NCBI GenBank assembly: GCA_948144175.1
Contig: CANXME010001986.1
Coordinates: 1-64,000 of the forward strand
Direction: 5' to 3'
Origin: Closterium sp. NIES-65
Lineage: Eukaryota; Streptophyta; Zygnematophyceae; Desmidiales; Closteriaceae
DNA length: 64,000 bases
Shown here: positions 3,075 to 62,426 of the stretch, in pieces
Layout: every line of letters starts with the position of its first letter
How positions within the stretch are numbered: position 1 is the stretch's first letter
Position numbers and translations under genes: made by a program
The notes under the pieces: model-generated
Databases searched by the model: none
Told to the model about the DNA's origin: nothing
Seen by the model: only the letters and a program-made list of their open reading frames with translations

Positions 3075-6000
3075 ATGGGCGTTTCCAGATATCACAGGCG
3101 GTTCCACATGCTGCTCGTGCCACTTGTCATGCTCTGGTTGGTCGTCTGCGCGCTGCCGTCCGCGCGTAGCGATGACGATGACGATGACGACGAGGGTGAT
3201 GACGCGGTAACCGGTGCATGCGAGGTGTCGTCGCTCGCCGGTTACAAATACGCCGTCGACCTCAGCGGCAGCGGGTAAGTTAGCAGCAGACGGCCAATGG
3301 GCAAGTCAACAACAGCCAGCCTTCAGCAAGTAATTTCTCAGCTGTTAACTTCGGTGGCGCGATTCAAGCACTGCTTCTTAACCCTTCCGCACTGTTGCTT
3401 TCCAATGCCCCCTCTTCCACATCCCCCTCTCCGTCGCTTCCCTCTTTCCCCGGACGTTAACCAACCGTTCCACCTCACCCCCTCCCCCCACTCGATCCCT
3501 TCGGCGCTCCATTCTCTATCCCCCCTCTCCCAACCAACAGTCTCTTGCACTGGGCTCCTAAAGGCACTAGCGAAATGGACTTCGCGGTCGAGGTGCCTCA
3601 ACGTCGTCTCTCCCCGCTCACACCTTGCGACGCTCCCTTCTCCATTCCTCCCCTCCTCCCCCCCTCCCCGCTTTCCCTCCCAACCTGCAGTCTCTACCTT
3701 CACTGGGCTCCTAAGGGCACTACTGAGATGGACTTTGCGATCGAGGCGCGGCCCGGAAGCAGAGCGGAGTCCACGTGGGTGTCCGTTGGGTGGTCATCTG
3801 GACGGATGGCTCCCGCCGACGCGGTCATGGGGAACCTTCCTGGAAACAAGGTCGCGGCGTACTCGATACAAGGCTACGACATGGGGTCCGTCGTACCGAC
3901 GACGGCGTTTTCGGTGGCGGCGGCGGAGGTTCTGACCAGCAATGGGCGGCAGCACGGTTTCCAAGTTCACGCGCACGATCGGCGACGGGGATTTCCCCGT
4001 CGCGCCCGACGCGAACACGCTTATCTGGGCGTTTTCCGAAAGTGTCTCGCAGGGGCTCGATTACCACGGCGGGAACTTGTAAGTGCGCGAAGGTTGCAGT
4101 ATACGCGTTATTAGCATCCATGTCCCGCGAGATAGCCTCCTGTGGGGAGTCCTTATCAAGTTCTTGTTTGTATTATATGGGCGAATCTCGTCCCTCACTC
4201 TGCCTGCCATTCTTCCCGTCGTCCCGTCGTCACCCCGTCCCGTTCTCGCAGCGGCATCGTGAACATCGACTTCACCTGCGCTAGCGGCGCCGCGCCCGCG
4301 ACGGGTGCACCAGACTCCATCACCGGCGGCGGCGGCAGCAGCTCGGGTTCCAGCAGCGGCGGCGGCGGCGGCGGCGGCGGCGCTTCGTGCCCGGCTTCCT
4401 CGCTGGCGGGATTCGACTATCAGGCGGAACTCACCCCAGGGTACGCGCAAACTCCCATCGTCTTCCTTCGGTCGTCGTCCACAGCCTCGGTCTCGCATTT
4501 TCCCCTCCCCCTTTCCCCCGCCAACAGCCTGCTCCTCCATTGGAAGCAAGCGTCCGCCGCGCCCCTCTTCCATCGACCCATTTGCCCGTTTTCCGCTTTC
4601 CCCGGCTATCTCTCTCTCTCCCCCGCTCTTCCCCCGCTCCGCTCCCCCTCCCCGCCAACAGTCTGCTCCTCCACTGGAAGCCAGCGTCCGCCACGTCGCT
4701 CGACATGGCGCTCGAGGCCACCGCATCCGGCGGCGCCGCGGGCTCGTGGATCTCCGTGGCCTGGACGGGCGACGGCCGGATGGTCCCGTCGGACGCGGTC
4801 ATCGGGAACATGCCGGGCGGCGCGGCCGGCGCGTACGCGATCTCGGGATACGATATGGGATCCATCGCGAAGACGACGACGTTTTCCGTCGGCGCGGCGG
4901 CGACGGAGACGTCGAGCGGCGGAAGCGCGATCGTGAAGTTTACGCGGACGGAGGGGGAAGGTTCGATCCCGATGTCGCTTTCCGCGCCGAACGCGCTGAT
5001 CTGGGCGTATTCCGGGAGCGGATCTCAATCGTTGGATTACCACGGCAATAACTTGTACGTGCAAGTCGGGGTTGGCTTTTTGTGTACTCGTTTGAAGGGC
5101 TTTTGCTGTGCAAAAATATATTGCGCTCTAATGTTGGATTTGTTTAGTTTCCATCTGTTTCCCCAACTCTCCTCTTTCCGCCTCACTAACCCTCAATTTC
5201 TCCTTTCGCCAATCTTCGTACCCTTTCCCCTATCTTTGCAGTGGTTCAAAAACCGTGAGCTTCAACTGTGGCGGCAGCAGCACCACTCCCACCACTCCTA
5301 CCACTCCCCCACTACCGCCAGTCCTCCCCCCGCAGTCCCCGCGCCCTCTCCCCCCGTCACCACCCCCACTCCGCCCACCACCTCCCCCTCCGCACCTGGC
5401 GCCAGTGGCAGCAACAGCAGCGGCCCTGCGTGCACGCCGTCTAGTCTGGATGGCTATACCTGCTCCGAGAAACTCAGCGGAAACGAGTGAGTGAATTCCC
5501 TTCACAGTCCAGACAGTCTCGTAATCCACCCCTCACTCGCTCTCATTCACGCATTCGCTCAAAGGCTCACTCACCTGCTCTCCCTCACTCACTCACCCTC
5601 CCCTCCCGCACTCACTCACCCTCCCCTCCCTCACTCCACCCCTCGCCCTTCCCAGCTTCGTTCTGCACTGGAAGACCAACGGTGACTCCATTGACCTGGC
5701 GTGCGAGGTGGCAACCACCGGGTGGGTCTCCCTGGGGTGGAGCGCCGACGGCAAGATGTACCCCGCTGACGCCGTTGTTGGCAACCTCCCCTCCTCCACC
5801 ACCATGCGCGCCGCTAGCACCACTTCGGGCGGCGCTACAGTCGCCAGCTACAGCGTTGCTGGCTACAGTGAATCTGACATCACTCCGGCGGCGGCGACCC
5901 TCCCGCTGGCCGCTACAGCTGTGGAGACCTCGTCCAATGGGAAGACGGTGGTGAAATTCTCGCGGAGCCTGGCCGGAGGGGATTTCCCGATTGACACGAG

Positions 6001-9000
6001 TGCGATGACGAATCTTATCTGGGCGTTTTCAGCTGATGGGTCCAAGACACTTGCCAATCACGGGGGCAACCGGTGAGCAAACCCATTCAGGTTTTCATCC
6101 TTTGTCTTCCCACTCCTCTGCCTCTGCCTCTTTGCCTCTGCCTCTTTGCCTCTGCCTCCTTACCTCTGCTCTGCGTCTGCCTCAGCTCTTCTCTCCCACT
6201 TCTCTACCTTCGTATCTCATTGCTCCCCTTTCTCCACTTCTCAGTCCGCTTCTCTTTTCTTCCCCCCTCCTCCCCTGCTCTTTTCCCCCTCCACAGCGGT
6301 TCTGCGGCTGTGAGTTTCGCTGCCGGCGCTGCTGCCTCATCTCCCCCATCAGGCTCGGGATCAGGCTCGGGTTTAGGCTCGCCAGCCCCCCCAACCACGC
6401 CTCCGCAGACCCCTCCTGTCCCCTCCACGCCCCCGCCAACCCCTCCTGCTGATTCGTCTGCCGGCAGTGGCAGCAGCAGCAGCAGCAGTAACAGCACTGG
6501 AAGCAGCAGCAGCTGCACTCCTTCCAGCATCGCTGGTTATGCCTGCTCGGCGAAGCTTGATGGGAACAAGTAAGCAGATCTGCATACCTACCTGTTGCAC
6601 TATCCTTTCCACGTGTTTGAAGTGTAGTTTTGAGGCGTCTCAAAACAGCACTGGAAGCAGCACAGCAGCAGCTGCACTCCTTCCAGCATCGCTGGTTATG
6701 CCTGCTCGGCGAAGCTCAATGGGAACAAGTAAGCAGATCTGCATACCTACCTGTTGCACTAGTCTTTCCGGTCAATTTCGTGTCTTCAATCTGTTCTCTG
6801 TCTGTTCAGCACTCCCTCTTCCCTCCCCCCCTCTCCAGCTTCATCCTACACTGGAAGGCCACCGGGGCCTTGCGAGGTGGCTTCATCAAACATCACCCTT
6901 GCCTGCGAGGTGGCAACCACCGCTCACTCACTCACTCACTGACTCTCTCAACCCACTCTCTCCCCGTTCCTTCCCACTCTCCCCCCCCCCAGCTTCATCC
7001 TGCACTGGAACACCACCGGGGCAAACATCGCCTTCGCCTGCAAGGTAGCAACCACCGGGTGGGTCTCCATCACTCACTATTCACTCACTCAGTCTCTCCC
7101 TCCCTTCCCTCCTCTTCCCCCTCCGCAGCTTCGTCCTGCACTGGACCACCACTGGGGCAAACATCGCCCTGGCCTGCGAGGTGGCAACCACCGGGTGGGT
7201 CTCCCTGGGGTGGAGCGCCGACGGAAAGATGTACCCCGCTGACGCCGTCGTCGGCAACCTTCCCTCCACCACCACCATGCGCGCCGCTGCGGGCAGCGCA
7301 GCAGGCAGCGCCACTACAGTCGCCAGCTACAGCATTGCCGGCTACAGCGAGTCTGACGTCACTCCGGCGGCGGCGACCCTCCCGCTCACCGCTACAGCCG
7401 TGGAGACCTCGTCCAATGGGAAGACGGTGATCCGATTCTCCCGCGCCATGGCCAAGGGGGAGTTCCCGATGAGTGCGACCGGGCCGACCAAGGTCATCTG
7501 GGCTTACTCGGCTGATGGGTCTAAGGCCCTGGCCAATCACGGCCCCAACCGGTATGTTCTCGTATCGTTGACCACTCACCCTATGTGTTGCGGATAATGT
7601 AACAACAAAGGTCATCTGGGCTTACTCGGCTGATGGGTCTAAGGCCCTGGCCAATCATGGCCCCAACCGGTAGGTCCAAATACATCTTCTTGCCTCCTCC
7701 ACAATCTCTGAGTTCAATCTTCATATGCTCGGCCAATGATGCTTTGACATTTGCAGCTTCGGGCATTGGGGTGATTACAGTGATCTGCTTTGGCTTAACC
7801 TTGGGATTGTCCCAACCTTGGGATTGTCCCGTGCACTAACCGTATGTTCCTGTCCCATCCCCACCCTGCTCTGCCCTAACAGCGGCTCTGCCACAGTCAA
7901 TTTCGTCTCCGGAGCCACGGATACAAGCTCGACCTCAGGCTCGACCTCAGGCTCGACCTCAGGCTCGGGTGCAACTGGGGCAGTCGACCCAGGCCAGGAT
8001 ACTTCCAAGGCGAGCAACAGCACCAGTGCCAGCAGCAGCGGTGGCAGCAGCAGTTGCACTCCGTCGACTATTGCTGGTTACACGTGCTCGGCTCAGCTTA
8101 GTGGCGACAAGTAAGTTTCTTTCTTCTTTTTACCTTCTCTAACGGTGGACATTACTACCTCTTTTTATAACATTAGGCATCCACTTTTTGCGAAAGAAAG
8201 CGAGTGTACCACTTTCCTCTTACCTTGGCTCTTTGTGTTACTCTCTCCCCCCCTCCTCTCTGTGTCCATTGATTCACAGGTACATTCTCCACTGGAAGGC
8301 CAACACATCAACAATCAGTTTCGCTGCTGAGGTGGCGACCTCCGGTTGGGTCTCGCTTGGGTGGAACAGCAACGGCAAAATGGAGCCGGCCGACGCAGCC
8401 ATTGGCAACCTGCCACCTGGCAGCAACAGCGCAGCGGTCGGCCCGTACAGCATCACGGGATACGGTGCGTCAGACATCTCTGCCACGTCAGCATTTGCCA
8501 TGTCAGGCACCACAGTGGAGTCGGCAGCCAATGGGAAGACGGTTGTGAAATTCACGCGGCCGATGGCGGGAGGATCATACCCGATCAACACGAACGGGCC
8601 TACCACGGTCATCTGGGCTTATTCTGCTGATGGCTCTCAGACTCTCGCCAACCATGGTCCAAACTGGTGAGTCCTCTTGCCATCGTCCATTGCACTAACT
8701 TTGGGTAAGGGAGGGATCGTACCCGATCAACACAAACGGGCCTACCATGGTCATCTGGGCTTACTCTGCTGATGGCTCTCAGACTCTGGCCAACCATGGT
8801 CCCAACTGGTGAGTCCGCTTGCCCTCTCCATTCCACCTCCTCTTGTGCGGAGTGATTGGACCCATTCGTGTTGCCTCAGAAGCATCCCTCATGCCATTCC
8901 TCATCCCTCATGCCATTCCTCATCCCTCATGCCATTCCTCATCCCTCATGCCATTCCTCATCCCTCTCCCATCCCCTCGTGTTTTCTGACTTCCTACAGC

Positions 9001-9693
9001 GGATCCGCTCAGATCGACTTCATCTCCGGCTCAAGCGTCTCGACCTCCTCTTCCTCTTCCTCAACGGCCTTCATCATCCACGGATGGCTGCTCGGCATCG
9101 CGTTCGGAATCCTCATGCCCGCTGCTATTCTCATCTCGCGAATCTTCCTCGCCGATAAGCTCCAGGAGAAGCCGCCCGGCGTGGACCACATCCAGTGGGA
9201 GGAGCAGATTGCGCGCGCGAAATCCTGGAAGCCTATGGCTTTCGAAACGCACAAGTGGATGCAGATTGTCGCGGTTGTGCTGGCTATCGCGGGGTGCATA
9301 ATCGGAATGGTTGAATCCGGTTCGGTGGGTCTGAAGGGAACCCACGGCCAGCTCGGAATCGCAATCTTTGTGATGATTTTCATCCAGCCTGTGATTGGTC
9401 ACTTCCGGCCAAACAAGGGTACAGTGAATCGGCCGACGTGGTTTGTTATCCACTGGGTGTTCGGCCTGGTTATTGTCGGACTCGCTTGGGTGAACACGTT
9501 CCTTGGGTTCGACGCCATGGCGGCTAAATTCGCCTCCGACATGCAAGTGTATTTCATCATCTTCGCGATTGCGATCGGGCTATTTGCGGCGATCTACGTG
9601 GTCATCTTCACGGTGGATCAGGTGGCGTTCATTCTCGCGAAGTTGAGACCTGTAGCGGATGAAGGAAGTGGAAAGCTGGTTGATGAAGTGTAG
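3075..9693 (+). CDS. Multi-DOMON cytochrome b561 protein (five DOMON modules), two exons with indels
   Basis: Predicted secreted/membrane redox protein. Exons: 3075-3274, 3691-4078, 4252-4440, 4662-5054, 5242-5486, 5656-6072, 6297-6569, 7129-7551, 7883-8110, 8280-8666, 9000-9693. Exon 1 encodes a hydrophobic signal peptide and an acidic Asp run. Five exons (3691, 4662, 5656, 7129, 8280) each encode a DOMON module with an LHW start, a GWVSLGW-type core, GKM-PADAV and an IWAYS end. They alternate with linker exons rich in Ser, Pro or Thr that end in a C-PSS-AGY-C-LSG motif. The last exon carries cytochrome b561 with four candidate haem histidines (IHGWLLG, ETHKWMQ, THGQLGI, VIHWVFG) and several membrane helices. 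Every intron is phase 2. Two exons break frame: an extra G near 3944-3946, and a shift inside the proline-rich linker 5242-5486. DOMON-b561 proteins pass electrons across the membrane from ascorbate; that role is inferred. Confidence 0.8.
8889..8965. repeat. 19-bp tandem repeat in the last intron of the first DOMON-b561 gene
   Basis: Four consecutive copies of ATGCCATTCCTCATCCCTC lie just upstream of the last exon's acceptor, inside the pyrimidine-rich intron. It is a small local expansion with no coding role seen. Confidence 0.8.
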
Positions 9694-17200: not shown

Positions 17201-17279
17201 AGGGTCCTGCCCCTTCAGGTGTGTCCCAGGTAGACGCGGTCGAGCCTGTCGAGGTCACTGGTGACTCTGGTGCTGCTGC

Positions 17280-45583: not shown

Positions 45584-46300
45584 ATGTGCAACTTGCATTG
45601 TCTGGTTTGTTTTCTTTAGCATGGTTTTCTAGGTTGTATATAACAGCCGTCCAAGCATTACGGATGCAGAAATGTGTATTGTCAGGTTTGCTTTGCTAGT
45701 AGGGTTTGCTTGGCTTGGCTAAGTAACAATACGTATGCATTGCTTTCATTTTGGATTGTGCATCAAGCTAATGTCCAGTCTTTGTGTTGATACAGAATAT
45801 AAAAGAGTGTATCAAGTGAGAATGACTATTTCAATACAGAAGGACAACAATAATTAGAAACGTCCTTAATTCCTCACCTCAGGCATTTGATTCCCCTCGA
45901 TTCCATGACCAACCGTTCACAACCTTCACCTAAATGTTTTGGATTGCAACGCACCTTCATCAAGCGAAGTGGTGAAGGTTCACAACCTTCACTGTGTCAG
46001 TGTCTGATATGCAGAGCAACGGATATCCATTGCAGCACGGCAACGTATAACGGTTGTCACTGATGTGGTGAAGTTCCGAAAATCAGCGTGTCTTGAATCC
46101 ACCACGGCCTTTCGCGGGCCTCCGCGCAGTTAGAAAAACACCACAACGCTTGGTCCTTTCTCTCGTTTCCAGGGTATTTTGGCGGCTTGGACGTATCTAA
46201 GTGGCATAGGCTCTGCTCCTTAGGTTCTTGCTATCATTGACGTCTAGATCCCTCGCCAGCTCGCTCGGTGAAACTCGTGGTTTGTTCGCCGTTAGCGAAG
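45584..46300. other. 3' flank and intergenic region
   Basis: AT-rich sequence after the stop at 45583, consistent with a 3' UTR, including a direct repeat of GGTTCACAACCTTCAC near 45910-45990. From about 46140 it leads into the 5' UTR of the next gene. Nothing else is seen. Confidence 0.4.
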
Positions 46301-49300
46301 ATGAATTCGTCACAGGCGGGTTACTTCGCGAAGCAGGGGCTGAGCATGCTGTACAATGCCACTGTAACGAGCGTGAGTGCGATTGCAACGGGGATAAACA
46401 AGGCGTACCAGACGTACACGGACTATTACGAGCGTGACCAGATCGAAGCTCTGAAGAAATCTGGCAAGCGACCAGCCGACAACCTCTATCTAGGTGATAC
46501 CGTTGCACGCGACATGAGGGCGTGGTTAGTACAGGATCTTTCTGCTTGTGATATCTCAATAACGCATGCGCGTGTGTTGCTTGACAATATATGCAGCATG
46601 TTCATGGATTCATGCGAAACTTCATGATTGGTGAACGCATGATTCACGAGCCACGAGCCACAAATTAATTCAAGCATGCAAGCATGAACCGTTTGCAAAG
46701 ATGAAATCATGGCTTCGTGAGTCCTTTGTTCCCTTATTCTCTTCTTTAATGTGGTCGCGAATCCCTGATGGTCATTGACATCAGGGTTCCATGGATTCAC
46801 GATTTTCGTACCTGATTCAATCCTTCTTCTGCGTGGCTGATTACAACAAACCCGTATGACAGTGCTGCAGCGCTTCCAGTATCTCTGCATGGCTGCCTAC
46901 AAGAACGAGGAGAGGAACCATTTCGTCTATGTCCTTGTCTCGTGCGTTGTAAACACACACCCATCTCCCCCCTTGTCCCTCACCACCCACATCAGTGCTG
47001 CAGCGCTTTCAGTACCTCTGCATGGCTGGCTACAACAACGAGGTTGCTGCTGCCGCCCAGAAGGCAGCTGCCAAGCTGGTGAGAGGGCAATGGGCCTGTC
47101 AGGTGTGCCAGGGGGTTGTCAGGTGTGCAATGGGTTTGTCAGGTGTGCCGGGAGGTTGTCCAATGTGCCTTGGGGTTTCCAGGTGTGCCTTGGGGTTGTC
47201 AGGTGTGCCTTTCTCACCTGGGTGCCGACATCAGTGTCACAGCGGTATGAGGAGCTTTTCTCTCAGAGCACTTTCTAACCCCACTCTTACTCCAACCAAC
47301 CCTCTCGTGTCTCTTTCCATTATCTTTTCTCCCAGACGGCAGGAGAGAAGAGCTCAGTGGCTCATGAGACGCTGCTGCTGCTCACCCGCGTGCTGACGTC
47401 AGTGTCGCAGCGGTATGGCGAGCAGTCAGGGTACCCTCTTTCCCGCTCCCAATCTCAACCCCTTGTCTCGCCTCTCCTTATCCCAACCTTCACTCCAGAC
47501 GGCAGGAGAGAAGAGCTCAGTGGCTCATGAGACGCTGCTGCTTCTCTGCCGCGTGCTGTCGTCAGTGTCGCAGCGGTACGGCGAGCAGTCGGGGCAGGGG
47601 TGGGGGCTGCAGGACTTTCTGAACTCGTCTCGCATGGGCAAGGACCACTTTGACCGCGACCAGCTCGTCATTGACTTCTACTTCGCCATCCTCTTCGTCC
47701 AGGACGTGAGTGGGTGGCAGGCAGGGCATGATGTGAGTGGGTAGCAGTGAGGCCATGATGTGAGTGGGTAGCAGTGAGGCCATGATGTGAGTGGGTAGCT
47801 AGCAGGGAAGGAGGGAGAGAGGGGATGACGACCAGCTCGTCATTGACTTGTACTTCGCCATCCTCTTCGTTCAGGACGTGAGTGCTCTGCCGTCCCCCCT
47901 TTCCCCCTCTCTCTAGTCTCTGCTCCCTGCTACCCACTCACCTTCGCATGCCACTCAGATGACGCTTGGCTCAGGTGGCTTACTAGGGAGGGATTGAGGG
48001 AATGTTTGAGTGAGTTAGTGAGTGAGTGAGGGCGCGAGTGAGTGAATGAGTGAGAAGTGAGTGAGGGAGTGAGAGGGGTGTTAGTGACCTGAGTGCCCTG
48101 CTCTGCTTTTCTCACATGAATGAGTCAACCGTAAGGTTGGTTGAAGCAGAAGTTCCTCGGTACGCTACTCTGCCTCTCTCACCATTGGCAACAGGGTTGC
48201 CTTCGCCCAACCCTCTTTCCCTCCACCCCTCTTCCGCCTTTTCGCCTGTTTCCCCAACTCAAAAAGAGTCGACTCAAAAATCGACTCACTACACATGTAT
48301 CAGGTGTGTGGGGGACCCGGGCTGCAGTTTAAGCAAGCCATTCGCGAGGCGACAGGGAGGCTGGTGGAGGGGGACAAATACATGGGCGAGGGAGAGTGAT
48401 TCTCTTGAATTTACTTAAGTACCAGCGCCTCCTCCCAACCCCACCCCACTTTCCGTACCCAAACCCCCTTTTGGTTTATCAGGTGTGTGGGGGACCCGAG
48501 CCGCAGTTTGAGCAAGCCATTCGCGAGGTGACAGGGAGGCTGGTGGAGGGGGACAAATACGTGGGCGAGGGAGAATGATTCTCTTGAATTTACTAAAGCA
48601 CCAGCGCCCCCTCCCAACCCCACCCCACTTTCCGTACCCAAACCCCCTTTTGGTTTATCAGGTGTGTGGGGGACCCGGGCCACAGTTTGAGCAGGCCATT
48701 CGTGAGGCAACAGGGAGGCTGGTGGAGGGGGATAAATACGTGGGTGAGGGAGGGGGGTTCTCTGGTGGCGGTGCAGCGTTCGGTGGTGCTTCCTCCTCCG
48801 TCCCCTCCTATGCTGCTGTGCCATCCGCCAGCGCTCTACCCTCTGATCAAGACCCCAAGTGAGTCCGTGGGTTCACATGCTGTAAAGGAGTGACATGACA
48901 AGTACGTGGGCGAAAGAGGGGGGTTCTCTGGTGGCGGTGCAGCGTTCAGTGGTGCTTCCTCCTCCGTCCCCTCCTATGCTGCTGTGCCATCCGCCAGCGC
49001 TCTACCCTCTGATCAAGACCCCAAGTGAGTCGCTACATTCCACTCCTTTTTATTTGTGAAAAACGAGAGGCAAGTATAAGGGCCAGGTATGAGGACGTGC
49101 TTTTGAGAATTCTCAAAAACACCCTGCAGTATGAGGGTGTGCTTTTGAGAATTCTCAATAACACCCTGAAGTATGAGGGCGTGCTTTTGAGAATTCTTAA
49201 AAACACCCTGCAGTATGAGGGCGTGCTTTTGAGAATTCTTAAAAACACCCTGCAGTATGAGGGCGTGCTTTTGTTAATTCTCAAAAACACCCTGCAGTAT

Positions 49301-52300
49301 GAGGGGGTGCTCTTGAGAATTCTCAAAAACACCCTGCAGTATGAGGGCGTGCTTTTGTTAATTCTCAAAAACACCCTGCAGTATGAGGGCGTGCTTTTGA
49401 GAATTTTCAAAACACCCTGCAGTATGAGGGCGTGCTTTTGAGAATTCTCAAAAACACCCTGCAGTATGAGGGCGTGCTGACTCTTCTGGCGCTTTATTCG
49501 TTGCTGCCTTTAGGGCTGACTATTGCCTCCATCCATCCCGTCCTGTGCCTCTGTTCCGTCGGCCAGTGCTCTACCTACCTGCCGATCAAGGCCCTAAGTG
49601 AGCTGCTTCTCTTTGTGTCATATGATGTGAGAGAGAGGTAAAAGCTAGACAAGTATGTGAGAGAGAGGTAAAAAAAGGACAAGTATGTGAGAGAGAGGTA
49701 AAAGCTGGACAAGTATGTGAGAGAGAGGTAAAAGCTGGACAAGTATGTGAGCAAAGAAAGCGATGGTGGTGGTGCAGGTGTAATTTCAGGCCGTCCGCAG
49801 GCAGAAGAGGAGGCAGACGGACGCAAGCAACGAAGGTGGTGCAGGTGCCCAATCACCAGGGACAAGGTGATGAAGGTGGTGCAGGTGCCCAGTCGCCAGG
49901 AAGAAGGTGATGAAGGTGGTGCAGGTGCCCAGTCGCCAGGAAGAAGGTGATGAAGGTGGTGCAGGTGCTATCGCAGGCCGTCCGCAGGACGTGGGCGAGG
50001 GAGGGGGGTTCTTTGGTAGCGGTGCTGCCTTCGGCGGTGCCTCCTCCTCCGTCCCCTCCTATGCTGCTGTGCCATCCGCCAACGCTCTACCCTCTGATCA
50101 AGACCCCAAGTGAGTCGCTACATTCCACTCCTTTTTATGTGTGAAAAACGAGAGGCAAGTATAAGGGCCAGGTATGAGGACGTGCTTTTGAGAATTCTCA
50201 AAAACACCCTGCAGTATGAGGGTGTGCTTTTGAGAATTCTCAATAACACCCTGAAGTATGAGGGCGTGCTTTTGAGAATTCTTAAAAACACCCTGCAGTA
50301 TGAGGGCGTGCTTTTGAGAATTCTTAAAAACACCCTGCAGTATGAGGGCGTGCTTTTGTTAATTCTCAAAAACCCCCTGCAGTATGAGGGGGTGCTCTTG
50401 AGAATTCTCAAAAACACCCTGCAGTATGAGGGCGTGCTTTTGTTAATTCTCAAAAACACCCTGCAGTATGAGGGCGTGCTTTTGAGAATTTTCAAAACAC
50501 CCTGCAGTATGAGGGCGTGCTTTTGAGAATTCTCAAAAACACCCTGCAGTATGAGGGCGTGCTTTTGAGAATTCTCAAAAACACCCTGCAGTATGAGGGC
50601 GTGCATTTCAGAATTCTCAAAAACATCCTGTAGTATGAGGGCGTGCTTTTTGAGAATTTTCAAGAACACCCTGCAGTATGAGGGCGTGCTTTTGAGAATT
50701 CTAAAAAATACCCTGCAGTATGAGGGCGTGCTTTTGAGAATTCTCAAAAACACCCTGCAGTATGAGGGCGTGCTTTTGAGAATTCTCAAAAACACCCTGC
50801 AGTATGAGGGCGTGCTTTTGAGAATTTTCAAAAACACCCTGCAGTATGAGGGCGTGCTTTTGAGAATTCTCAAAAACACCCTGCAGTATGAGGGCGTGCT
50901 GACTCTTCTGGCGCTTTATTCGTTGCTGCCTTTAGGGCTGACTATTGCCTCCATCCATCCCGTCCTGTGCCTCTGTTCCGTCGGCCAGTGCTCTACCTAC
51001 CTGCCGATCAAGGCCCTAAGTGAGCTGCTTCTCTTTGTGTCATATGATGTGAGAGAGAGGTAAAAGCTGGACAAGTATGTGAGAGAGAGGTAAAAAAAGG
51101 ACAAGTATGTGAGAGAGAGGTAAAAGCTGGACAAGTATGTGAGAGAGAGGTAAAAGCTGGACAAGTATGTGAGAGAGAGGTAAAAGCTGGACAAGTATGT
51201 GAGAGAGAGGTAAAAGCTGGACAAGTATGTGAGAGAGAGGTAAAAGCTGGACAAGTATGTGAGAGAGAGGTAAAAGCTGGACAAGTATGTGAGAGAGAGG
51301 TAAAAGCTGGACAAGTATGTGAGCAAAGAAAGCGATGGTGGTGGTGCAGGTGTAATTTCAGGCCGTCCGCAGGCAGAAGAGGAGGCAGACGGACGCAAGC
51401 AACGAAGGTGGTGCAGGTGCCCAATTGCCAGGAAGAAGGTGATGAAGGTGGTGTAGGTGCTATCGCAGGCCGTCCGCAGGCAGAAGAGGAGGCAGATGGG
51501 CATAAGCAGCGCACATTCAAAGAAGCAGAGGACATGTTGCGACAGCCATCTCGTGCAATCACACATTTCCGCTTCCCCCCCCCCCCTTCCCCCCTTTTCC
51601 CCCCCCTTCCCCCTTTTTTCCCCCCTCTTCCCCCCTCTTTCCCCCACACGCCATTTCACCCAACAATCCCCTTCCTCCTGCTGCTCCCTCTTTCTCCTCT
51701 GTGTCTCCCCCACCATCAGGAAGAAAGCGATGAAGGTGGTGCAAGTGCTATCTCAGGGCGTGCGCAAGGCAGCAGAGGATGCAGACGGGCGCAAGCAGCG
51801 GTCGCTCAAAGAAGCAGAGGACATGCTCCGACCGCCGTCTCATGCAATCACTTATACCCCTTGGCTTTCCCCTTTTCTCCCTACCCCCTCCTCCTCCTTC
51901 TCTCTGTTTCTCTTCTCTTTCTCTCCCCTGTTCCCGGCCCCACTCCCAATCGCCAGGAAGAAGGCGATGAAGGTGGTGCAGGTGTTATCTCAAGCCGTGC
52001 GAAAAGGATGCGGACGGGCGCAAGCAGCGCTCGCTCAAAGAAGCAGAGGACATGCTTCGATTGCCATCTCATGCAAGCACACATCCCTGTACTTTCCCCC
52101 TTTCCCCCTTCTCCTTCTCCTCCCTCTCCTCCTTCTGCTCTATGTTTCTCCTGTGTTTCTCCCCTCCTCCCCACCCATAACCCCCCAGGAAGAAAGCGAT
52201 GAAGGTGGTACAGGTGCTGTCACAAGCTGTGCGCAAGGCAGCAGGTGATGCAGACGGCCGCAAGCAGCGGTCGCTCAAAGAAGCAGAGGACATGCTTCGA

Positions 52301-54139
52301 CTGCCATCTCATGCCATCACTTATACCCTTGGCTTTTCCCTTTCCCCACTACCCTCTCCTCCTCTCTGTTTCTCTTCTCTTTATCTCCCCCGTCTTCCCC
52401 CCCTTTCTCACTCCACTTGCCAGGAAGAAAGCGATGAAGGTGGCGCAGGTGTTGTCGCAAGCCGTGCGGAAGGCAGCAGAGGATGCGGACGGGCGCAAGC
52501 AGCGCTCCCTCAAGGAAGCAGAGGACATGCTTCGACTGCCATCTCATGCAGTCACACATACCCCTCTACTGTCCCCCTTCCCCCCTACCCTCTCTTTCTC
52601 CTGCTCAATGTTTCTCCTTCCTCTCTTCCCCCCGCCCTCCCCCCCTCTCCTCCCCCGCTCTACAATTGCCAGGAAGAAAGCGATGAAGGTGGTGCAGGTG
52701 CTATCCCAGGCCGTGCGAAAGGACTTTTGAGTCGACTCAAAAGTCAGCTTAGTGCAGGTGCTATCCCAGGCCGCGGGAAAGGACTTTTGAGTCGACTCAA
52801 AAGTCAGCTTGGTGCAGGTGCTATCCCAGGCCGTGCGAAAGGACTTTTGAGTCGACTCAAAAGTCAGCTTGGTGCAGGTGCTATCCCAGGCCGCGCGAAA
52901 GGACTTTTGAGTCGACTCAAAAGTCAGCTTGGTGCAGGTGCTATCCCAGGCTGTGCGAAAGGACTTTTGAGTCGACTCAAAAGTCAGCTTGGTGCAGGTG
53001 CTATCCCAGGCCGCGCGAAAGGACTTCTGAGTCGACTCAAAAGTCAGCTTGGTGCAGGTGCTATCCCAGGCCGTGCGAAGGACTTTTGAGTCGACCCAAA
53101 AGTCAGCTTGGTGCAGGTGCTATCCCAGGCCGCGCGAAAGGACTTTTGAGTCGACTCAAAAGTCAGCTTGGTGCAGGTGCTATCCCAGGCCGCGCGAAAG
53201 GACTTTTGAGTCGACTCAAAAGTCAGCTTGGTGCAGGTGCTATCCCAGGCCGTGCGAAAGGACTTTTGAGTCGACTCAAAAGTCAGCTTGGTGCAGGTGC
53301 TATCCCAGGCCGTGCGAAAGGCAGCAGAGGATGCAGACGGGCGCAAGCAGTGCTCCCTCAAAGATGCAGAGGACATGCTTCAACTGCCATCACATGCAAG
53401 CACACATACCCCTCGGCTTTCCCCTTGTCCACCTACCCCCTGCCCCTCCTCCTCTCTGTTTCTCTTCTTTTTATCTCCCCCTTCTCCCCCCCCTTCACAC
53501 CCCACTTGCCTTGCCAGGAAGAAAGCGATGAAGGTGGTGCAGGTGTTATCTCAAGCCGTGCGAAAGGCAGCAGAGGATGCAGACGGGCGCAAGCAGCGCT
53601 CCCTCAAAGAAGCAGAGGACATGCTTCGACGCGAAAACGAAAAGGCAGCTGCGGCCGCCGGCGTGGCCTATGCCGGACCTCCCGCCAAGCCTCTCAGCAG
53701 CTTCGGCGGCGGAGCCTCGGCAGCAGCTCCGGTCGGAGGGTATGGTTCGGCGGGTGGTATGGCGGCGAAGCCGAGTAGCGTGTCGAATTGGAGTGGGGGG
53801 AGTGGGGCTGCTGCTGCTGCGCCCAGCCCTTGGGGTGGGGGAGGGGGGAGTGCGTTGGGGGGACCAGTAGGGGGAACGATGGGGGGAGGTGCAGGGGGGA
53901 GTGTGTGGGGAGGAGGGGGGAGTGCGAGTGTGGGAGGGGGAGGGGGTTTTGGAGGAGGTAGCGGTGGTGGTGGGGGGGGCTGGGGGGGGAGTGCGTCAAC
54001 AGGAGGGGGAGGGGGAGCGTGGGGGGCAGGGGGAGGGCAGGCAGGGGGGAGTGCAGGGGGGTGGGGGGGAACGACAGGGGGAAGCACGACGGGAGGGAGT
54101 TCTGGGTGGGGTACCGGCACTGGTGGCAGCTTGATATAA
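46301..54139 (+). CDS. Unrecognised five-exon gene with Gly-rich tail
   Basis: Exons 46301-46493, 46996-47078, 47499-47705, 48662-48858, 53518-54139 sum to 1302 bases (433 residues) with consistent phases. The first 230 residues look alpha-helical and globular (GYFAKQGLSMLYNATVTSVS, LQRFQYLCMAGYNNE, DRDQLVIDFYFAILFVQD, QFEQAIREATGRLVEGDKYV). A basic/acidic helix follows (KKAMKVVQVLSQAVRKAAED, LKEAEDMLRRENEKA), then a tail made almost only of Gly, Ser and Ala with scattered Trp. There is no signal peptide or obvious membrane span. I do not recognise the family and assign no function. The first donor (TAG|GTGATA) is the least certain junction. The 4.7-kb last intron is filled with copies of its own exons and minisatellites. 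Confidence 0.65.
48000..48080. repeat. GAGT simple repeat
   Basis: Degenerate GTGAGTGAGTGAG-type microsatellite inside the third intron of the unknown gene. Confidence 0.8.
48303..48580 (+). repeat. Two shadow copies of exon 4 of the unknown gene
   Basis: Segments starting at about 48303 and 48482 repeat the intron end (TATCAG) and the first ~95 bases of exon 4 (GTGTGTGGGGGACCC onwards, to GGGCGAGGGAG), at a period of about 179 bases before the true exon at 48662. Each keeps an AG acceptor, but the copies end before the exon's donor and run into intron sequence (TGATTCTCTTGAATT). Confidence 0.85.
48898..49980 (+). repeat. About 1.1-kb intronic repeat unit, first copy
   Basis: Begins with a copy of the 3' part of exon 4 with its donor (CCCCAAGTGAGTCGC near 49020). 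It continues through a 42-bp minisatellite (49082-49480; units GCAGTATGAGGGCGTGCTTT plus GAGAATTCTCAAAAACACCC), a diverged exon-4 end (about 49560-49605), a 30-bp minisatellite (49640-49745) and a degenerate exon-5-like block (49750-49980). The same order recurs at 49985-51480. Confidence 0.85.
49985..51480 (+). repeat. Intronic repeat unit, second expanded copy
   Basis: Same order as 48898-49980 with expanded arrays: the 42-bp array runs 50160-50905 and the 30-bp array (GACAAGTATGTGAGAGAGAG plus GTAAAAGCTG) runs 51055-51325. The first eight or so 42-bp units match the first copy unit by unit including their variants (for example GTTAATTCTC), so the block was duplicated as a whole and then grew. 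Confidence 0.85.
51450..52735 (+). repeat. Tandem array of shadow copies of the last-exon start
   Basis: Copies of the final intron's 3' end plus the first ~115 bases of exon 5 (GAAGAAAGCGATGAAGGTGG to AGAGGACATGCT) occur near 51450, 51718, 51958, 52190, 52422 and 52672, at a period of about 235-250 bases. A further copy at about 53298 precedes the true exon at 53518. The complete intermediate copies diverge from the exon after the same point, where they read CCATCTCATGCA instead of coding sequence. Acceptors are kept, donors are absent. Confidence 0.85.
52727..53320 (+). repeat. 60-bp minisatellite built from exon 5 plus a palindrome
   Basis: Ten units of 60 bases. Half of each unit is exon-5-derived (GGTGCAGGTGCTATCCCAGG then CCGTGCGAAA) and half is GGACTTTTGAGTCGACTCAA AAGTCAGCTT-type sequence holding the perfect palindrome TTTTGAGTCGACTCAAAA. 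The period keeps frame, so the array is open for translation. Confidence 0.9.
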
Positions 54140-55600: not shown

Positions 55601-56411
55601 TCGCACTATCTCTGCTTCTTCTTCTTCCCTCCCCACTTCTGCTTCTTCTGCACCCCTCTCCACCTCTCTACTGCTGCACCTGCTGAGCTGCCCAATGCAC
55701 TGCTTCCCCTCATGCGCTCCCTATCTCTCCCCTTCATTCTTCCCTCCACTCTCCCCTCCACTCTCCCCTTCACTCTCCCCTTCCGTCGTCCAGATTCTGC
55801 TGTTTCGTTCGTCCCTTCCTCCACCTCTGTTCCTGCTGCACCTGCTAAGTTGCTTATTCCATATTTCACTCGACTGATGCCATCCCCCTCACTCCTCCCT
55901 TCGCCTTCCCCTCATTCTCTCCCTTCTCCCCTTCAACACCCTCTCATGCTCTCCCCTTCACTCTCCCACATTCTGCTGCGACTTTTCTCTCTTCTTCCAC
56001 CTTTGCTCCTGCCGCATCTGATGAGCTGCCCACCCTTCACTTTTCCCCATTGCACTGCTTTACATTCCTCTCATATCAAGCTCTCCCCTTCACTATCCCT
56101 TCACTCTCCCCTTCACTCGTCCACATTCTGCTGCTTCTTCTGCCTTTCCTTCCACCTCTGCTCCTGCTGCATCTGCTGAGCTCCCCACCCTTCACTCTTC
56201 CCCATTGCACTGCTTTTCTCTCTACTCTGATGCTCTCCCTTAACACTCCCCTTCATTCTCTTCACTCGTCTATTCTCTGCTGCTTCTTCTGTCTCTCCTT
56301 CCACCTCTGCTCCTGCCGCATCTGCTGGGCTGCCCCCTCTTCCACTCTTCCCCATTGCACTGCTTTTTACATTCCCCTCCTCCCATGCCCTCCCCTTCAC
56401 TCGTCTACTCT
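55600..56411 (-). repeat. Degenerate copies of the 3' coding end of the tyrosine-recombinase-like gene
   Basis: On the minus strand, segments encoding QQM(Q/R)QEQRWKERQKKQ or decayed versions recur near 56310, 56160, 56005, 55835 and 55670, separated by about 150 bases of purine-rich spacer, following the intact coding end at 56412-56470. They lie beyond the predicted stop and could be 3' UTR, unused exons or alternative ends. Confidence 0.7.
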
Positions 56412-57407: not shown

Positions 57408-57474
<67 letters not shown>

Positions 57475-60400
57475 GAATGAGGAGCAACTGGCAGATAGGT
57501 GTTGCGTGCTGCTGCTGCAAATGCAACAGCAGGGGAAACCGCAGGAGCCAAAACAGCAGGGAATGAGGCGTGATTGGTCGAGCTTCCAGCCAATAGCATC
57601 GTGCCACCTGTCCCTGTGCCGCCCAGGTAAAAGGGAGCGCCCCCGTTAATAACTCTCGAGTTTGCAGGTTGCTGCTGCTGATTTCGCTGCTGCTGCTGCT
57701 GTTGCTGCTGATTCTGCTGCTGAATTTGCTGTTGCTGCTGCTGCTGTTGGTCTGCCTGTGGTCGGTGCTGTGAAAACCTCTTTTGCCACTTCTCCCTCGA
57801 AACACCCCCCAAGCTCTCCCCCAAGTCCCCCTCTACACAATCCACAGAAACGTTCACCCCCCGGGCGGCGAGTTCTGTCCGTATCTGCCCCATGCGCAAC
57901 TGTAGCTTCTGCAGCTGCGACTGTAGCTGTATACATTCTGTCTGATACTCCTGCAATTGCTGCAGCAGCTGGGAAGTCTGGATTTGATTCTGTATCCCAT
58001 TCTCCTCATCTCCTTGACTCTGCACCTTCTTCCTTCGATTCCCGTTCGCAAGGGTTTTCTCCTGTGCAGACGCATGTGTTTTTATCTGCCCGTTTTTCTG
58101 CCCCTGTAATTGAGTGGTTGTAGCAGCAGCGGTCCCTCCCCACATCTCTTCTCCTGCACCTCCCCCCATCCCTTCCCCCATCGTTCCCCCCAATCTCTCC
58201 CCCATCGGTCCCCCCAATCTCTCCCCCATCACTCCCCCCAATCTCTCCCCCATCGGTCCCCCCATCCCTTCCCCCATAGTTCCCCCCAATGTCTCCCCCA
58301 TCGGTCCTTCTCCCTGAAATTGGTTCAGTGGCACCTGAGAATTCGCCTCAATCTGTTGATTCACCTGGCTCTGTTGCCCCATCCGGTTCCCCACCTGAAC
58401 CCCCACCTGCTGCTGCAACTCCCCTTCCCCCGCCATCTCCCCTCTGGTTACCCCCTCTCCTCCACCATCCCCTCCCCCATACCTCCCCTCCTCCTCCCCT
58501 TGCCCGTCCTCATCCCCCTCTTCCCCCTCTCCCCCCTCTTCCCCCCCTCCCCCCGCTTGCTCCCCCACCTCCCCTCCCCCTCCCCCATCATCTTCTGGCG
58601 AGTACAAAGTGTATAAAATCTTAACAGAGCAATTCGCCTCCCTTAAAACCTCTTCTAAGGAGAATCCAGCCATGAACAGTAGAGTAACGCCAAGTGACCT
58701 GAAAAATCTCCTGCCCACGTGGGTCAGCCCGGCAGCATCTGCCAGGTGGGCGGCGGAGCGAGCCAGGTTGGTGCGGCCCATGGGGTGGCGGGCGTAGCTG
58801 GTGCAGGTGGTATGTGGGGGCGTGTAGGGGGAAAAGGGGAGGGAAGAAAGTGGGGAAGGGGCATTTAGGAGCGAGCCAGGTTGGTTCGACCCATGGGGTG
58901 GCGGGCGTAGCTGGGGGGGGGGGGGGGGGGGGAGGAAGAGGAGGGGGGTAAGAGGAAGAGGAGGGGGGTAAGAGGAAGAGGAGGGAAGAGGGAAGAAGGG
59001 GGTATTCAGAATGACCAAATGAAAAAGGGGGTTTTTAGAATGACCAAATGGAGAAGGGGGTATTTAGAATGACCAAATGGTTCTTTCTGGTTGAGGCACC
59101 TCAATAAGGGGCATTTAGAATCGGGCTATTGATTGGTGCGCCTTGGCAGCATCTGCCAGGTGGGCGGCGGAGCGAGCCAGGTTGGTTCGGCCCATGGGGT
59201 GGCGGGCGTAGCTGGTGCAGGTGTTATGTGGGGGAGCTGGGAGGTTGGAGAGGGGGAGAAGGGGAGGGAAGAGCTGGGGAAAGGGGCATATAGGAGGGAT
59301 TGGTCGTTAGGTCATGTCAGTTCGGACAGCTGACAGCATTGGCTAAAATCTAGATGAGGGATGGAGCGAGACACGCTAGTTTAGCCCATGGGGTGGCGGG
59401 CGCAGCTGGTGCAGGTGTTATGTGAGGGAGGGAGGAAACAGGGAGGGGGAGTGGTGGTGGTGGATGGGTGGGTGGGAAGAAGGCGGGGAAGGGAGGTGGA
59501 AAAGGGGAGATGGGGGGGAGAGGAAAAGTGGGGGGAAGGGGATTGGGCACATAGGTTGGGTGCATGAGCAACAGTGGAGTGGAGTGACGCCAAGGGACCT
59601 GAAAAATCTCCTGAAAAATCTCCTGCCCACATGAGTGAGCCCGGCTCACCTGTTCAGAGGCCCGAAAGAAGGCACGCGAGAAAACTTCGCCGACAGAAAC
59701 AGGCTCGGCGCAGCTCCGGGCGGGCGCATCCGAGCCTCCTCGTCCAAAATCCGAACCGGGCACAGGATCGGGTTCTGCAGGTTCGGGAAGAACTGCTTCT
59801 GCACGAGGCTCGGCGCGAGGCTCGGCGGCGGCACAAACGCAACATGCTCGCCCGGAAACTGCGGCGACAGGTACTCCCCTCCCCGGTTCAAAACGACAAA
59901 ATGGGAGAACTCAAGCTTGAGTAGGGAGTCCAAGCCGCCCCGGACGGCAAGAGTGGCGAAGACTATGAGCTTTCGCATGGTGTGGGCGATGGCGTTGGTT
60001 CGGGCGAGGGCTGGGCTTGCCATCATGTGACGAACGTCGGATAGACGGAGCGCGTGGGATGATGATGATGATCCGTGTTGTTTGCGCTTCCGCTTCCTGC
60101 TGCTGCTCGTTTCATGACTTGCTGCTGCTGCTGCTGCTGCTGAAATAACCTGCTCCCTGCTGCCACTAACAGTACCGGTCGCTACTGGTACTCGTGCTCG
60201 TGCTGCTCCTACTCCTGCTGCTGCTTCTTCCTCCTCTGCACGTCCCTCTTCCTCCTCCGCCTCTCGCTTCACATCCGTGCCTGTAGCCCCAACCTCTGCT
60301 GCTGAACTCATCTCGCCTTGCTCCCTGCTAGTATACACGGCCTCGCCTTGCTCTCTGCAGCCAAATTCAAGCCCGTCTTTCTCCATTCCCTCTGCATTAA

Positions 60401-62426
60401 AGGAACCTTCTTCTATGCTGCACTCATCCTCTGTCTCCTCATCATCTGTAGACTGTAGCAGCATATCGCCTCCCCCAGTAACGCCCTCCTTGGTAACACC
60501 CCAAGTGCTTCCCCTGGTGGCTCCCCCAGTGGCCCCTTCATTCGGAACTGATCCAGGTTCATCTATAGAAGGATCCGTTACAAGAGCATCTGTTACTGGA
60601 GCATCTGATACAAGAGCATCCAATATAAGAGCATCCGTGACAGGAGCATCCGTTACAAGAACATCCGTCATAGGAGCATCTGTTATAAGGGCATCCGGTA
60701 CAGGAGCGCCTGCCAAGAGCACAGCTTCAGCAGCAACAGCAAAAGGCGTCTCAACAGCTTCAGCAGTCACAGCCTCTGCTTCCGCCATTGTCACTTGGTG
60801 TGACTCCTCCTCCTCAGCATTCCCCCCCATTATTGTCACCCGGTCTAATCGCCCCTCAGCTGCTTCAGCAGTCACAGCCTCTGCTTCCGCCATTGTCACT
60901 CGGTGTGACTCCTCCTCAGCATCTCCCCCCGTTATTGTCACCCGGTCTAACTCCGCCTCAGCTGGCTCACCAGTCACAGCCTCTGCTTCCGTTATTGTCA
61001 CTTGGTGTAACTCCTCCTCAGCAGCAGCCCCCGCTATTGTCACTTCCCCTAACTCCGCCTCCTCGGCTGTAGCCGCCCTTCCAGCCTCCTCCTCCACATT
61101 TGTAGCCGCCTTCCCAGCCTCCTCGTCCACGGCTGTAGCCGCCTTCCCAGCCTCCTTCTCTACGGCTGTAGCCGCCTTCCCAGCCTCTTCCTCCACATTT
61201 GTAGTCGCCTTCCCAGCCTCTTCCTCCACATCTGTAGTCGCCTTCCCAGCCTCCTCCTCCACATCTGTAGTCGCCTTCCCAGCCTCTTCCTCCACATTTG
61301 TAGTCGCCTTCCCAGCCTCCTCCTCCACATTTGTAGTCGCCTTCCCAGCCTCCTCGTCCACGGCTGTAGCCAGCTTCCCAGCCTCCTTCTCTACGGCTGT
61401 AGCCGCCTTCCCAGCCTCTTCCTCCACATTTGTAGCCGCCTTCCCAGCCTCCTCGTCCAAAACTGTAGCCGCCTTCCCCACGTCTACGTCTGTAGCCGCC
61501 TTTTCTGCCTCCTCGTCCACAAGTGTAGCCGCCTTCCCCACGTCTACGGCTGTAACGGCCTTTTCTGCCTCCTCGTCCGCAAGTGTAGCCGCCTTCCCCA
61601 TGTCTACGGATGTAGCGGCCTTTTCCGCCTCCTCGTGCACAAGTGCAGCTGCCGTCCTCGCCTCCTTGTCTACGGCTGTAGCCGCCTTCTCAACGTCTTG
61701 CGACTTCTCTATATCTACTTCTGAGACGCCTTTTAACGCGTCCACGGTTAATCCGTCGCACTCAGCGTCGCCCCCGGGTCGTTCTGCGGCCATCTCGTCG
61801 CCTCCTGTTACCACGTCACAAGACTGCGGCTGGTCTGCTTCCGTCTCCTGCCCTGCAGCGTCCGCTGTAGGTCCCGACGTTCCGTCGACTGTTTTTTCAG
61901 CTGTTTCGTCGGCTGCAGCGTTTGCTGTAGCAGGTCCCCGTTTCTCGTCGGCTGTAGCGTCGGCTGTAGCGTTTGCTGTAGCAGGTCCCGCTTTCTCGCA
62001 CGCTGTAGCGTCGGCTGTAGCGTTTGCTCTAGCAGGTCCCGCTTTCTCGCACGCTGTAGCGTCGGCTGTAGCGTTTGCTCTAGCAGGTCCCGCTTTCTCG
62101 CACGCTGTAGCGTCGGCTGTAGCGTTTGCTCTAGCAGGTCCCGCTTTCTCGCACGCTGTAGCGTCGGCTGTAGCGCTCTCATGGGATGCATGCTGCTGCA
62201 TCTCATGACCGCTTGGATGCCGATCCAAAGACGCGTCGTGACGTACGCCTTCCGCGTCTTGTTCCTTTCTAGCCTCCGCAGCGTCATTAGTAGCGCTTCC
62301 CTGAACCGCAATTGCTGGGTTTTGAGATGTCTCAGAATTAGTGGCACCCTCTTGACCAACAATTCCTGGATCCGCGTCAGATACTGCGTTAGACACAACA
62401 ATTGCTTGATCGCCGTTGTCTGCCAT
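56412..62426 (-). CDS. Large low-complexity protein with a split tyrosine-recombinase-like core
   Basis: Two exons, 62426-59650 and 58797-56412 (phase-2 junction, 5163 bases, about 1720 residues). Residues 1-700 are Ala/Glu-rich repeats (CEKAGPARANATADATA, 17 residues; EEEAGKATTNV, 11 residues). A basic KRKRKQ stretch may be a nuclear signal. Residues 835-1000 read like a tyrosine-recombinase catalytic domain: FATLAVRGGLDSLLKLEFSHF fits box I with its Arg, then CPVRILDEEA. After the splice comes AAGLTHVGRRFFRSL with an H-x-x-R, LFMAGFSLEEV, and a Tyr in ILYTLYSPE. The usual LGH histidine position seems to be Asn (REANCS). Acidic Gly-rich, coiled-coil-like, polyQ, polyAla and Gly-Met repeat regions follow. 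The recombinase link is by motif only; the protein may be a domesticated Crypton-like or phage-integrase-like gene without catalysis. Confidence 0.65.
57400..57480 (-). repeat. Poly-alanine trinucleotide tract
   Basis: AGC-rich tract on the plus strand, read as Ala codons on the minus strand in the second exon of the recombinase-like gene. Confidence 0.85.
57664..57755 (-). repeat. Poly-glutamine trinucleotide tract
   Basis: CTG-rich on the plus strand, giving Gln runs interspersed with Asn, Ile and Arg in the recombinase-like protein. Confidence 0.85.
58860..59645 (-). repeat. Shadow copies of the second exon start in the intron of the recombinase-like gene
   Basis: The intron 59649-58798 holds degenerate copies of the exon-2 start: near 58869-58915 and 59140-59215 (both with the ARHPMGRTNLARS-like reading), near 59365-59415, and near 59578-59635 (a copy of the HVGRRFFRSLGVT part). 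At least two keep the CACCAG acceptor. A run of about 19 G at 58915-58933 and AGGAGGGGG repeats lie between copies. Confidence 0.8.
61060..61700 (-). repeat. 33-bp coding repeat in the recombinase-like gene
   Basis: Degenerate 33-base units encode EEEAGKATTNV-type 11-residue repeats, about 15-20 copies, with Val/Thr/Ala variants and no frame break. Confidence 0.85.
61945..62175 (-). repeat. 51-bp coding repeat in the recombinase-like gene
   Basis: Four to five nearly identical 51-base units encode a 17-residue repeat containing CEKAGPARANATADATA. Their high identity suggests recent expansion or homogenisation. Confidence 0.88.

What the first reader, a model, noticed from the sequence alone, without database searches (positions are those of the whole stretch)
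3540..62426. Shadow exons: many exons in four unrelated genes have degenerate partial copies in the flanking introns, with splice sites retained
Seen directly. First DOMON gene: 3540-3591, about 4531-4565, 6644-6745, 6838-7066 (three), 7603-7673, 8703-8812. Second DOMON gene: 41349-41455, 41771-41880, 42345-42404, 42840-43015, 43103-43160, 43697-43752. Unknown gene: 46861-46915, 47336-47430, 47826-47885, 48303-48580, 48898-49026, 49985-50111 and the 51450-53320 array. Recombinase-like gene: 55600-56411 and 58860-59645. Copies upstream of an exon carry its 5' part with the acceptor, and copies downstream carry its 3' part with the donor. Such a regular pattern across unrelated genes points to a genome-wide tendency to duplicate splice-site-spanning segments, either a repair or replication-slippage signature or a source of alternative splicing. 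I know of no name for it.
Basis: partly seen in the sequence, partly recalled or inferred. Interest (0 to 1): 0.88.

Follow-up and report, generated by a model that had tools for sequence, protein, structure and literature searches.

The report
Exon-edge copies left by local duplications
In this single-celled relative of land plants (a Closterium alga), genes carry decayed copies of their own exon edges inside introns, left by small local duplications, and some of these surround tiny palindromic inserts that occur about thirty thousand times in the genome and look like an undescribed kind of insertion.

Summary
The window is Closterium (named protein matches 97% and 93%; own assembly 874 Mb). 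In three genes with checked exon models, 13 of 20 introns hold a copy of a flanking exon above every shuffled intron. All 9 downstream copies carry the donor and 8 of 9 upstream copies start at the exon's 5' end. A locus taken blindly from another contig shows the same. I read the shadows as short local duplications that survive because one crossing a splice site leaves the mRNA unchanged. Splice-site targeting is not shown; an exon-hugging bias stays unexplained.

A second layer was not in the finding. Two shadows enclose, and two arrays contain, the palindrome TTTTGAG-N4-CTCAAAA: 30,327 copies genome-wide, reversed control 4. In 28 of 32 sampled groups it lies between adjacent direct repeats, against 180 of 1200 control positions in the same loci. 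At least six filled sites have a paralogous site without the insert and with the flank once. Two literature searches showed me no description of it. How the inserts form is inferred, not shown.

The parts
3075..9692 (+). First DOMON gene, 11 exons (3075-3274, 3691-4078, 4252-4440, 4662-5054, 5242-5486, 5656-6072, 6297-6569, 7129-7551, 7883-8110, 8280-8666, 9000-9692)
   Evidence: hand-built exon model; exon 2 has a frame break (described only)
3541..3596 (+). acceptor-side shadow of exon 3691-4078
4525..4567 (+). acceptor-side shadow of exon 4662-5054
6627..6646 (.). palindrome GTTTTGAGGCGTCTCAAAAC at the left border of the copy at 6644
6644..6769 (+). donor-side shadow of exon 6297-6569 with 41 nt of intron; with 6490-6610 it encloses the palindrome and a longer left arm shared with locus L041
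6838..7068 (+). two acceptor-side shadows of exon 7129-7551 (about 6839 and 6993)
7605..7675 (+). donor-side shadow of exon 7129-7551
8709..8836 (+). donor-side shadow of exon 8280-8666
41042..45584 (+). Second DOMON gene, exons modelled 41042-41317, 41927-42301, 42518-42793, 43229-43627, 43953-44327, 44561-45110, 45413-45584 (5' end not determined)
41330..41355 (.). decayed palindrome (TCGA family) between exon 41042-41317 and its shadow
41357..41454 (+). donor-side shadow of exon 41042-41317
41768..41877 (+). acceptor-side shadow of exon 41927-42301
42344..42436 (+). donor-side shadow of exon 41927-42301
42841..43016 (+). donor-side shadow of exon 42518-42793
43102..43141 (+). 5'-truncated upstream shadow of exon 43229-43627
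43698..43766 (+). donor-side shadow of exon 43229-43627 (97% identical)
46301..54139 (+). Unknown gene, exons 46301-46493, 46996-47078, 47499-47705, 48662-48858, 53518-54139; orthologues in Closterium Naga37s-1 and Yama58-4
46863..46910 (+). acceptor-side shadow of exon 46996-47078
47336..47431 (+). acceptor-side shadow of exon 47499-47705
47829..47884 (+). donor-side shadow of exon 47499-47705
48298..48580 (+). two tandem acceptor-side shadows of exon 48662-48858 (period 179)
48897..49031 (+). donor-side shadow of exon 48662-48858
49087..50900 (+). two arrays of a 42-bp unit, each unit carrying TTTTGAGAATTCTCAAAA or a variant
51717..52722 (+). tandem acceptor-side shadows of exon 53518-54139 (period 235)
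52690..53321 (+). array of a 60-bp unit: 33 nt of exon plus palindrome ACTTTTGAGTCGACTCAAAAGT
58730..59425 (-). minus-strand gene: repeated acceptor-plus-exon start (CAG|CTACGCCCGCCACCCCATGGG and variants); the lowest copy, near 58800, runs on into longer sequence
   Evidence: read by eye, no exon model

Best explanation
The shadow exons are leftovers of short local duplications (roughly 40-250 bp, copy placed next to its source), which this Closterium genome has at high density in genes. A duplication inside an exon changes the protein and is mostly lost. One that crosses a donor or an acceptor leaves a complete original exon with working splice sites and puts the spare part into the intron, so it persists and decays there. 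That is enough to give the stated rule. Most of the acceptor-side copies look like tandem repeats of polypyrimidine tract plus AG plus exon start. The donor-side copies have a spacer, and in two cases it is a palindromic insert (TTTTGAG-N4-CTCAAAA). Genome-wide this palindrome sits between direct repeats of about 16-130 bp, and insert and flank duplication look like one event. Shown: the copies, their geometry, the palindrome's numbers and flank repeats, and sites without insert that have the flank once. Inferred: that survival explains the rule, and that the inserts arise when a break with long overlapping ends is filled in and joined through a short palindromic DNA, perhaps because both ends receive the same added sequence and pair at its self-complementary four-base tip.
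For: Exon-intron scans in three genes. Same pattern in the blindly chosen locus L008. Local spaced duplications: 33 in 191.6 kb of 20 blindly chosen loci against 0 in shuffles; 6 in 6.7 kb, 6 in 4.8 kb and 15 in 7.9 kb in the three genes; 3 in 30.9 kb of a stretch that contains retrotransposons. Spliced model of the unknown gene matches annotated orthologues at 94% over its whole length, skipping the shadows. Differences between exon and shadow: 31 residues with an orthologue for reference; 17 where the exon keeps the orthologue's residue, 11 where the shadow does, 3 neither (with the correction; the script alone gave 19, 9, 3 because it aligned one exon to the wrong repeat). Palindrome: 30,327 places, reversed control 4; 46 of the 50 places listed there have one of four self-complementary centres, the other 4 being one transition away; adjacent flank repeat in 28 of 32 groups against 180 of 1200 control positions at score 32, 22 of 32 against 146 of 1200 with one fixed window; at least six filled sites with a site without insert.
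Against: Purely intronic duplications of this size were not seen among 12 in the two DOMON genes where the null expects 35%, and donor copies include less intron than expected. Most donor-side spacers (seven of nine) contain no clear palindrome. Four of the 32 palindrome groups fail the adjacency test, and a palindrome in L008 (5806) and one in the window (62320) have no flank repeat. Judged by repeat score alone, without position, only 3 of 24 palindromes exceeded the 90th percentile of random positions, because these loci are full of arrays. For L026 no site without insert was found in the genome. Exon-shadow differences fall mostly on third codon positions (19, 13, 48), which is compatible with a decaying copy beside a constrained exon but also with copies from a diverged gene.
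Confidence: 0.7

Rival explanations
1. A mechanism targets splice sites or exons, for example breaks tied to transcription or splicing, so that segments at exon edges are duplicated preferentially.
For: No purely intronic duplication among 12 in D1 and D2 (p 0.006), and the upstream copy of donor-side pairs ends 6-7 nt past the splice junction in five of nine pairs.
Against: Survival predicts the same rule. Short purely intronic arrays do exist (for example 5566-5636, 8883-8966) and an intronic spaced pair is seen in L008 (1472/1542). The palindrome flanks sampled show no common motif at their ends by eye (10 sites).
Confidence: 0.14
2. The shadows are used as alternative exons or alternative splice sites.
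For: Splice sites and reading frame are kept in several, and the two copies differ mainly at third codon positions.
Against: Copies are truncated; donor-side copies mostly lack an acceptor of their own. Annotated proteins of other strains omit them. Shadows carry more changes away from the orthologue than exons do (17 against 11).
Confidence: 0.08
3. Shadows are junctions between diverged gene copies (template switching between paralogues or strains' haplotypes), not copies of the present exon.
For: Strains of this complex recombine sequences of different origin (PMC10407611, section read); shadow residues match the Naga37s-1 or the orthologous form at 11 of 31 differences; homology in several pairs stops at the donor consensus.
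Against: Several pairs are 95-97% identical to the neighbouring exon, and full exons on both sides are of one type. Decay after duplication, with some conversion between exons (exon 41927 is 93% identical to 43229), explains the same residues.
Confidence: 0.1
4. Assembly artefact (collapsed alleles or chimeric reads).
For: The copies are short and local; the assembly holds an identical second copy of part of the second DOMON gene on contig C43, which may be redundancy.
Against: Copies are diverged by 3-23%, unlike read errors. Tandem arrays, decayed palindromes and related sites without insert need real history. Assemblies of this species complex in PMC10407611 used long reads with N50 of 17 kb or more (section read), though I did not identify the strain for certain.
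Confidence: 0.03

Closest known systems
[quoted passage not shown] 2016, PMC4974935; sections 3 and 5 read)
   Same: A tandem duplication crosses the intron end and exon start; splice signals are copied with it.
   Different: There a new intron is spliced and an exon is added; here the spare copy stays inside the old intron as far as gene models show, and cases are numerous.
Small tandem duplications from breaks with complementary overhangs filled by Pol alpha-primase (PMC8355091; abstract and outline read)
   Same: Staggered ends filled in and joined give a local direct repeat.
   Different: No palindromic insert of recurrent sequence is mentioned in what I read.
Introners (PMC9860276; search listing only)
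   Same: Repeated short sequences spread through genes.
   Different: Introners create introns. The sequence here occurs inside introns, intergenic or repetitive DNA and duplication arrays, as far as I could tell.
MITEs and other DNA transposons with terminal inverted repeats (recalled)
   Same: Inverted-repeat sequence, many copies, direct repeats at the flanks.
   Different: Flank repeats vary from about 16 to 130 bp and the insert is only about 18-55 bp, nearly all palindrome.

Membership tests
[quoted passage not shown]
[quoted passage not shown]
   shadows lie within introns of my models and annotated orthologues omit them; no RNA available
DNA transposon or MITE | terminal inverted repeats | tested here: met
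   the insert is a palindrome
DNA transposon or MITE | target-site duplication of fixed short length | tested here: not met
   flank repeats 11-97 bp among adjacent cases, 16-129 bp
DNA transposon or MITE | a related autonomous element with transposase | not tested
   whole-genome DNA and family searches did not run
Introner | each insertion makes a new spliced intron | tested here: inconclusive
   at 6627 and 41333 the palindrome lies inside an intron whose flanking exons are modelled; elsewhere not testable
Small tandem duplication from staggered breaks | local direct repeat, single copy in the unduplicated state | tested here: met
   six of 34 filled sites have a related site with one flank copy (output cut, so at least six)
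Small tandem duplication from staggered breaks | dependence on the break-repair pathway | not testable with these tools
   needs experiments

The most novel reading that the evidence does not exclude
The 18-55 bp palindromes are a new class of insertion: tens of thousands of copies with four fixed self-complementary centres, inserted together with a 16-130 bp duplication of the target, made by adding the same short sequence to both ends of a staggered break and pairing the ends at the four-base tip, or by an unknown palindromic mobile DNA. They seed tandem arrays and, when they land at exon edges, shadow exons, so one process shapes introns genome-wide in this lineage.
Probability: 0.42. Interest if true: 0.86.

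Novelty: new variant of a known kind. Interest (0 to 1): 0.7.

Why it matters
Intermediates between a local duplication and a gained or enlarged intron are rarely caught. Here many of different age sit in the same genes, so the fate of splice-spanning duplications can be followed directly. In the two DOMON genes, introns with shadows average about 380 bp and those without about 210 bp (lengths). The palindromic inserts would, if confirmed, be a form of insertion with no known counterpart and a natural source of duplications in a close algal relative of land plants.

Tried and rejected
Rogers-type intron gain by an AGGT duplication: rejected for these cases, because the donor-side copy sits just behind its own exon, not in front of the next one.

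Direct comparison with a second copy of the second DOMON gene: contig C43 holds 1251 of 1251 identical bases, shadows included, so it gives no site without insert.

A pattern search for the L026 site without its insert found nothing, up to 3 mismatches.

Third-codon-position excess as proof of coding use: not pressed, since 19, 13, 48 differences do not clearly exceed what a neutral copy beside a constrained exon would give.

Exact continuation of the tandem unit into the spacers: weak for most pairs (largest z 4.5, 2.9, 1.7), so I did not claim simple tandem origin for donor-side pairs.

Sharing of a shadow with strain NIES-53: its annotated protein begins with residues resembling window 43838 onward, but the match of that stretch to the exon only ties its shuffled control, so I treat it as suggestive.

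Looking for the palindrome in viral contigs gave 0, and in bacterial and archaeal genome contigs 4 stretches.
Full report
Identity. The C-terminal part of the second DOMON gene matches proteins of Closterium sp. NIES-53 (97%, whole query) and Naga37s-1 (93% over 34% of the query). The window is contig C1688, bases 1-64000, of an assembly of 874,075,685 bases in 2400 contigs. That is close to the 876 Mb given for strain NIES-65 in table 1 of PMC10407611 (section read); naming the strain is inference. Window positions of about 16.9-30 kb hold retrotransposon ORFs (RVT_2 twice, integrase).

Observation. Self-comparison gives 161 short-range matches, arrays and minus-strand matches included, against 0, 1, 0, 1 and 0 in five shuffles. 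Exon models were built by hand. The unknown gene's spliced protein matches annotated proteins of Naga37s-1 and Yama58-4 at 94% over the whole query. Scanning each intron against its two exons, keeping only the best match per pair, gives shadows above every shuffle in 5 of 10, 4 of 6 and 4 of 4 introns: 18 shadows, 9 downstream and 9 upstream. The nine downstream copies all retain a GT donor; the upstream ones retain AG (read). Only 43102 breaks the rule about the exon's 5' end. The fourth region, on the minus strand, shows the acceptor-plus-exon start repeated several times, but I made no exon model there.

Not confined to the window. Of 20 loci taken at fixed positions on contigs chosen by number, 11 hold spaced local duplications, 33 in all, with none in shuffles. 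I read one of them, L008, in detail: it has repeated acceptor-plus-exon starts near 5868, 5997 and 6118, and near 2446, 2600, 2755 and 2877, in a gene with a CUE domain ORF.

The null of survival. A duplication across a donor leaves the first copy attached to the exon and the second in the intron; across an acceptor it is the reverse. So the rule needs no targeting. A simulation with my estimated ancestral introns expects 35% purely intronic duplications; 0 of 12 were seen in the two DOMON genes (p 0.006), and the intronic part of the seven donor copies averages 20 nt against 56 (p 0.0004). I leave this unexplained; short intronic arrays were not counted.

State of the shadows. Exon and shadow differ at 19, 13 and 48 first, second and third codon positions of 266, 266 and 262 in ten pairs of the DOMON genes. 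With an orthologous protein for reference, 31 residue differences in ten pairs split 17 (exon keeps the orthologue's residue), 11 (shadow does) and 3 (neither) after correcting one pair that the script had aligned to the wrong repeat (uncorrected 19, 9, 3). So both have changed, the shadow more. One exon (41927) is 93% identical to a later exon of the gene, which suggests conversion.

The palindrome. In the window TTTTGAG-N4-CTCAAAA has 42 matches with up to 3 mismatches, against 2.05 expected, most of them in two kinds of array. It lies at the border of the shadows at 6644 and 41357. In the genome the TCGA-centred form has 13,080 exact places (reversed control 0) and the general form 30,327 (control 4). 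The listing is capped: of its 50 places, on three contigs, 46 have centre TCGA, ACGT, GCGC or AATT and the other four are one transition away. A 38-bp palindrome around TCGA has 641 places with up to 3 mismatches (control 0), and in the part listed the mismatches lie mostly at the outermost base. The same 18-mer occurs in 0 viral contigs and 4 stretches of the bacterial and archaeal collection.

Flank repeats. In 20 loci fetched around TCGA palindromes taken from that capped list, all 24 groups have some direct repeat of 16-129 bp within 150 bp, but score alone did not separate them from random positions in these array-rich loci (3 of 24 above the control's 90th percentile). Requiring the repeat to sit next to the palindrome does: 22 of 32 groups against 146 of 1200 with one window, 28 of 32 against 180 of 1200 when nearer windows are also tried (21 of 24 for TCGA at score 28). 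With up to 2 mismatches and including the window and blind loci, 41 of 60 against 336 of 1800. Examples: a 32-bp perfect palindrome between two 44-bp copies (L029), and 23 bp between two identical 60-bp copies (L024).

Sites without insert. Of 34 filled sites compared with all sequence held, at least six have a related place where the two outer flanks meet with one copy of the repeat and no insert: L030:1664, L027:2684, L036:1580, L028:1756, L025:1972 and, weakly (71%), L034:2050 (output cut; hits inside arrays of L023 and the window's 50690 were dropped). For L026 none was found genome-wide.

Mechanism, inferred. Insert and flank duplication together suggest a break with long overlapping ends, filled in and joined. 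Fill-in at staggered breaks is a known source of small tandem duplications (PMC8355091, abstract). A fixed centre, arms of varying and unequal length and a self-complementary tip would follow if both ends received the same added sequence and paired at their tips; a palindromic mobile DNA is the alternative. Neither was tested.

Literature. A search for intron gain with tandem duplication and AGGT gave four papers, of which I read two sections of PMC4974935; it describes one duplication across an exon-intron boundary that made a new intron. Searches for palindromic insertions with target duplication, for Closterium with palindromes and transposition and for shadow or partial exon duplications listed nothing that describes this, judging by titles and abstract starts. 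The library holds open-licence papers only.

Noticed in passing
window 13285-26479: Two related retrotransposon stretches with RVT_2 domains and long GC-rich arrays; an integrase ORF follows at 28589-30091.
   Followed up: partly
window 25846-27785: Direct duplication of about 960 bp, 90% identical, with a 19-bp gap.
   Followed up: no
window 41924-42080 and 43226-43382: 93% identity between two exons of the second DOMON gene across their acceptors, while the shadow of the first is more different: possible conversion.
   Followed up: partly
window 40908-42158 and G000:C43:879750-881000: Identical over 1251 bases: recent segmental copy or redundant contig.
   Followed up: partly
window about 3940: Reading frame of exon 2 of the first DOMON gene changes; sequencing error or decay.
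   Followed up: no
window 38417-38433 and 38545-38565: Two further near-perfect palindromes of another sequence (CAAGTTTT..AAAACTTG) about 130 bp apart.
   Followed up: no
L008:4446-4475: AATT-centred palindrome TGCGACTTATGAGAATTCTCAAGAGTCGCA with only a few bases repeated at its flanks.
   Followed up: no
window 6611-6646 and L041:327-362: Shared longer arm (about CACGTGTTTGAAGTGTAG) beside the palindrome, so the ACGT family has its own arm sequence.
   Followed up: partly
L020: A satellite-like array of about 370 bp period fills this 10-kb locus.
   Followed up: no
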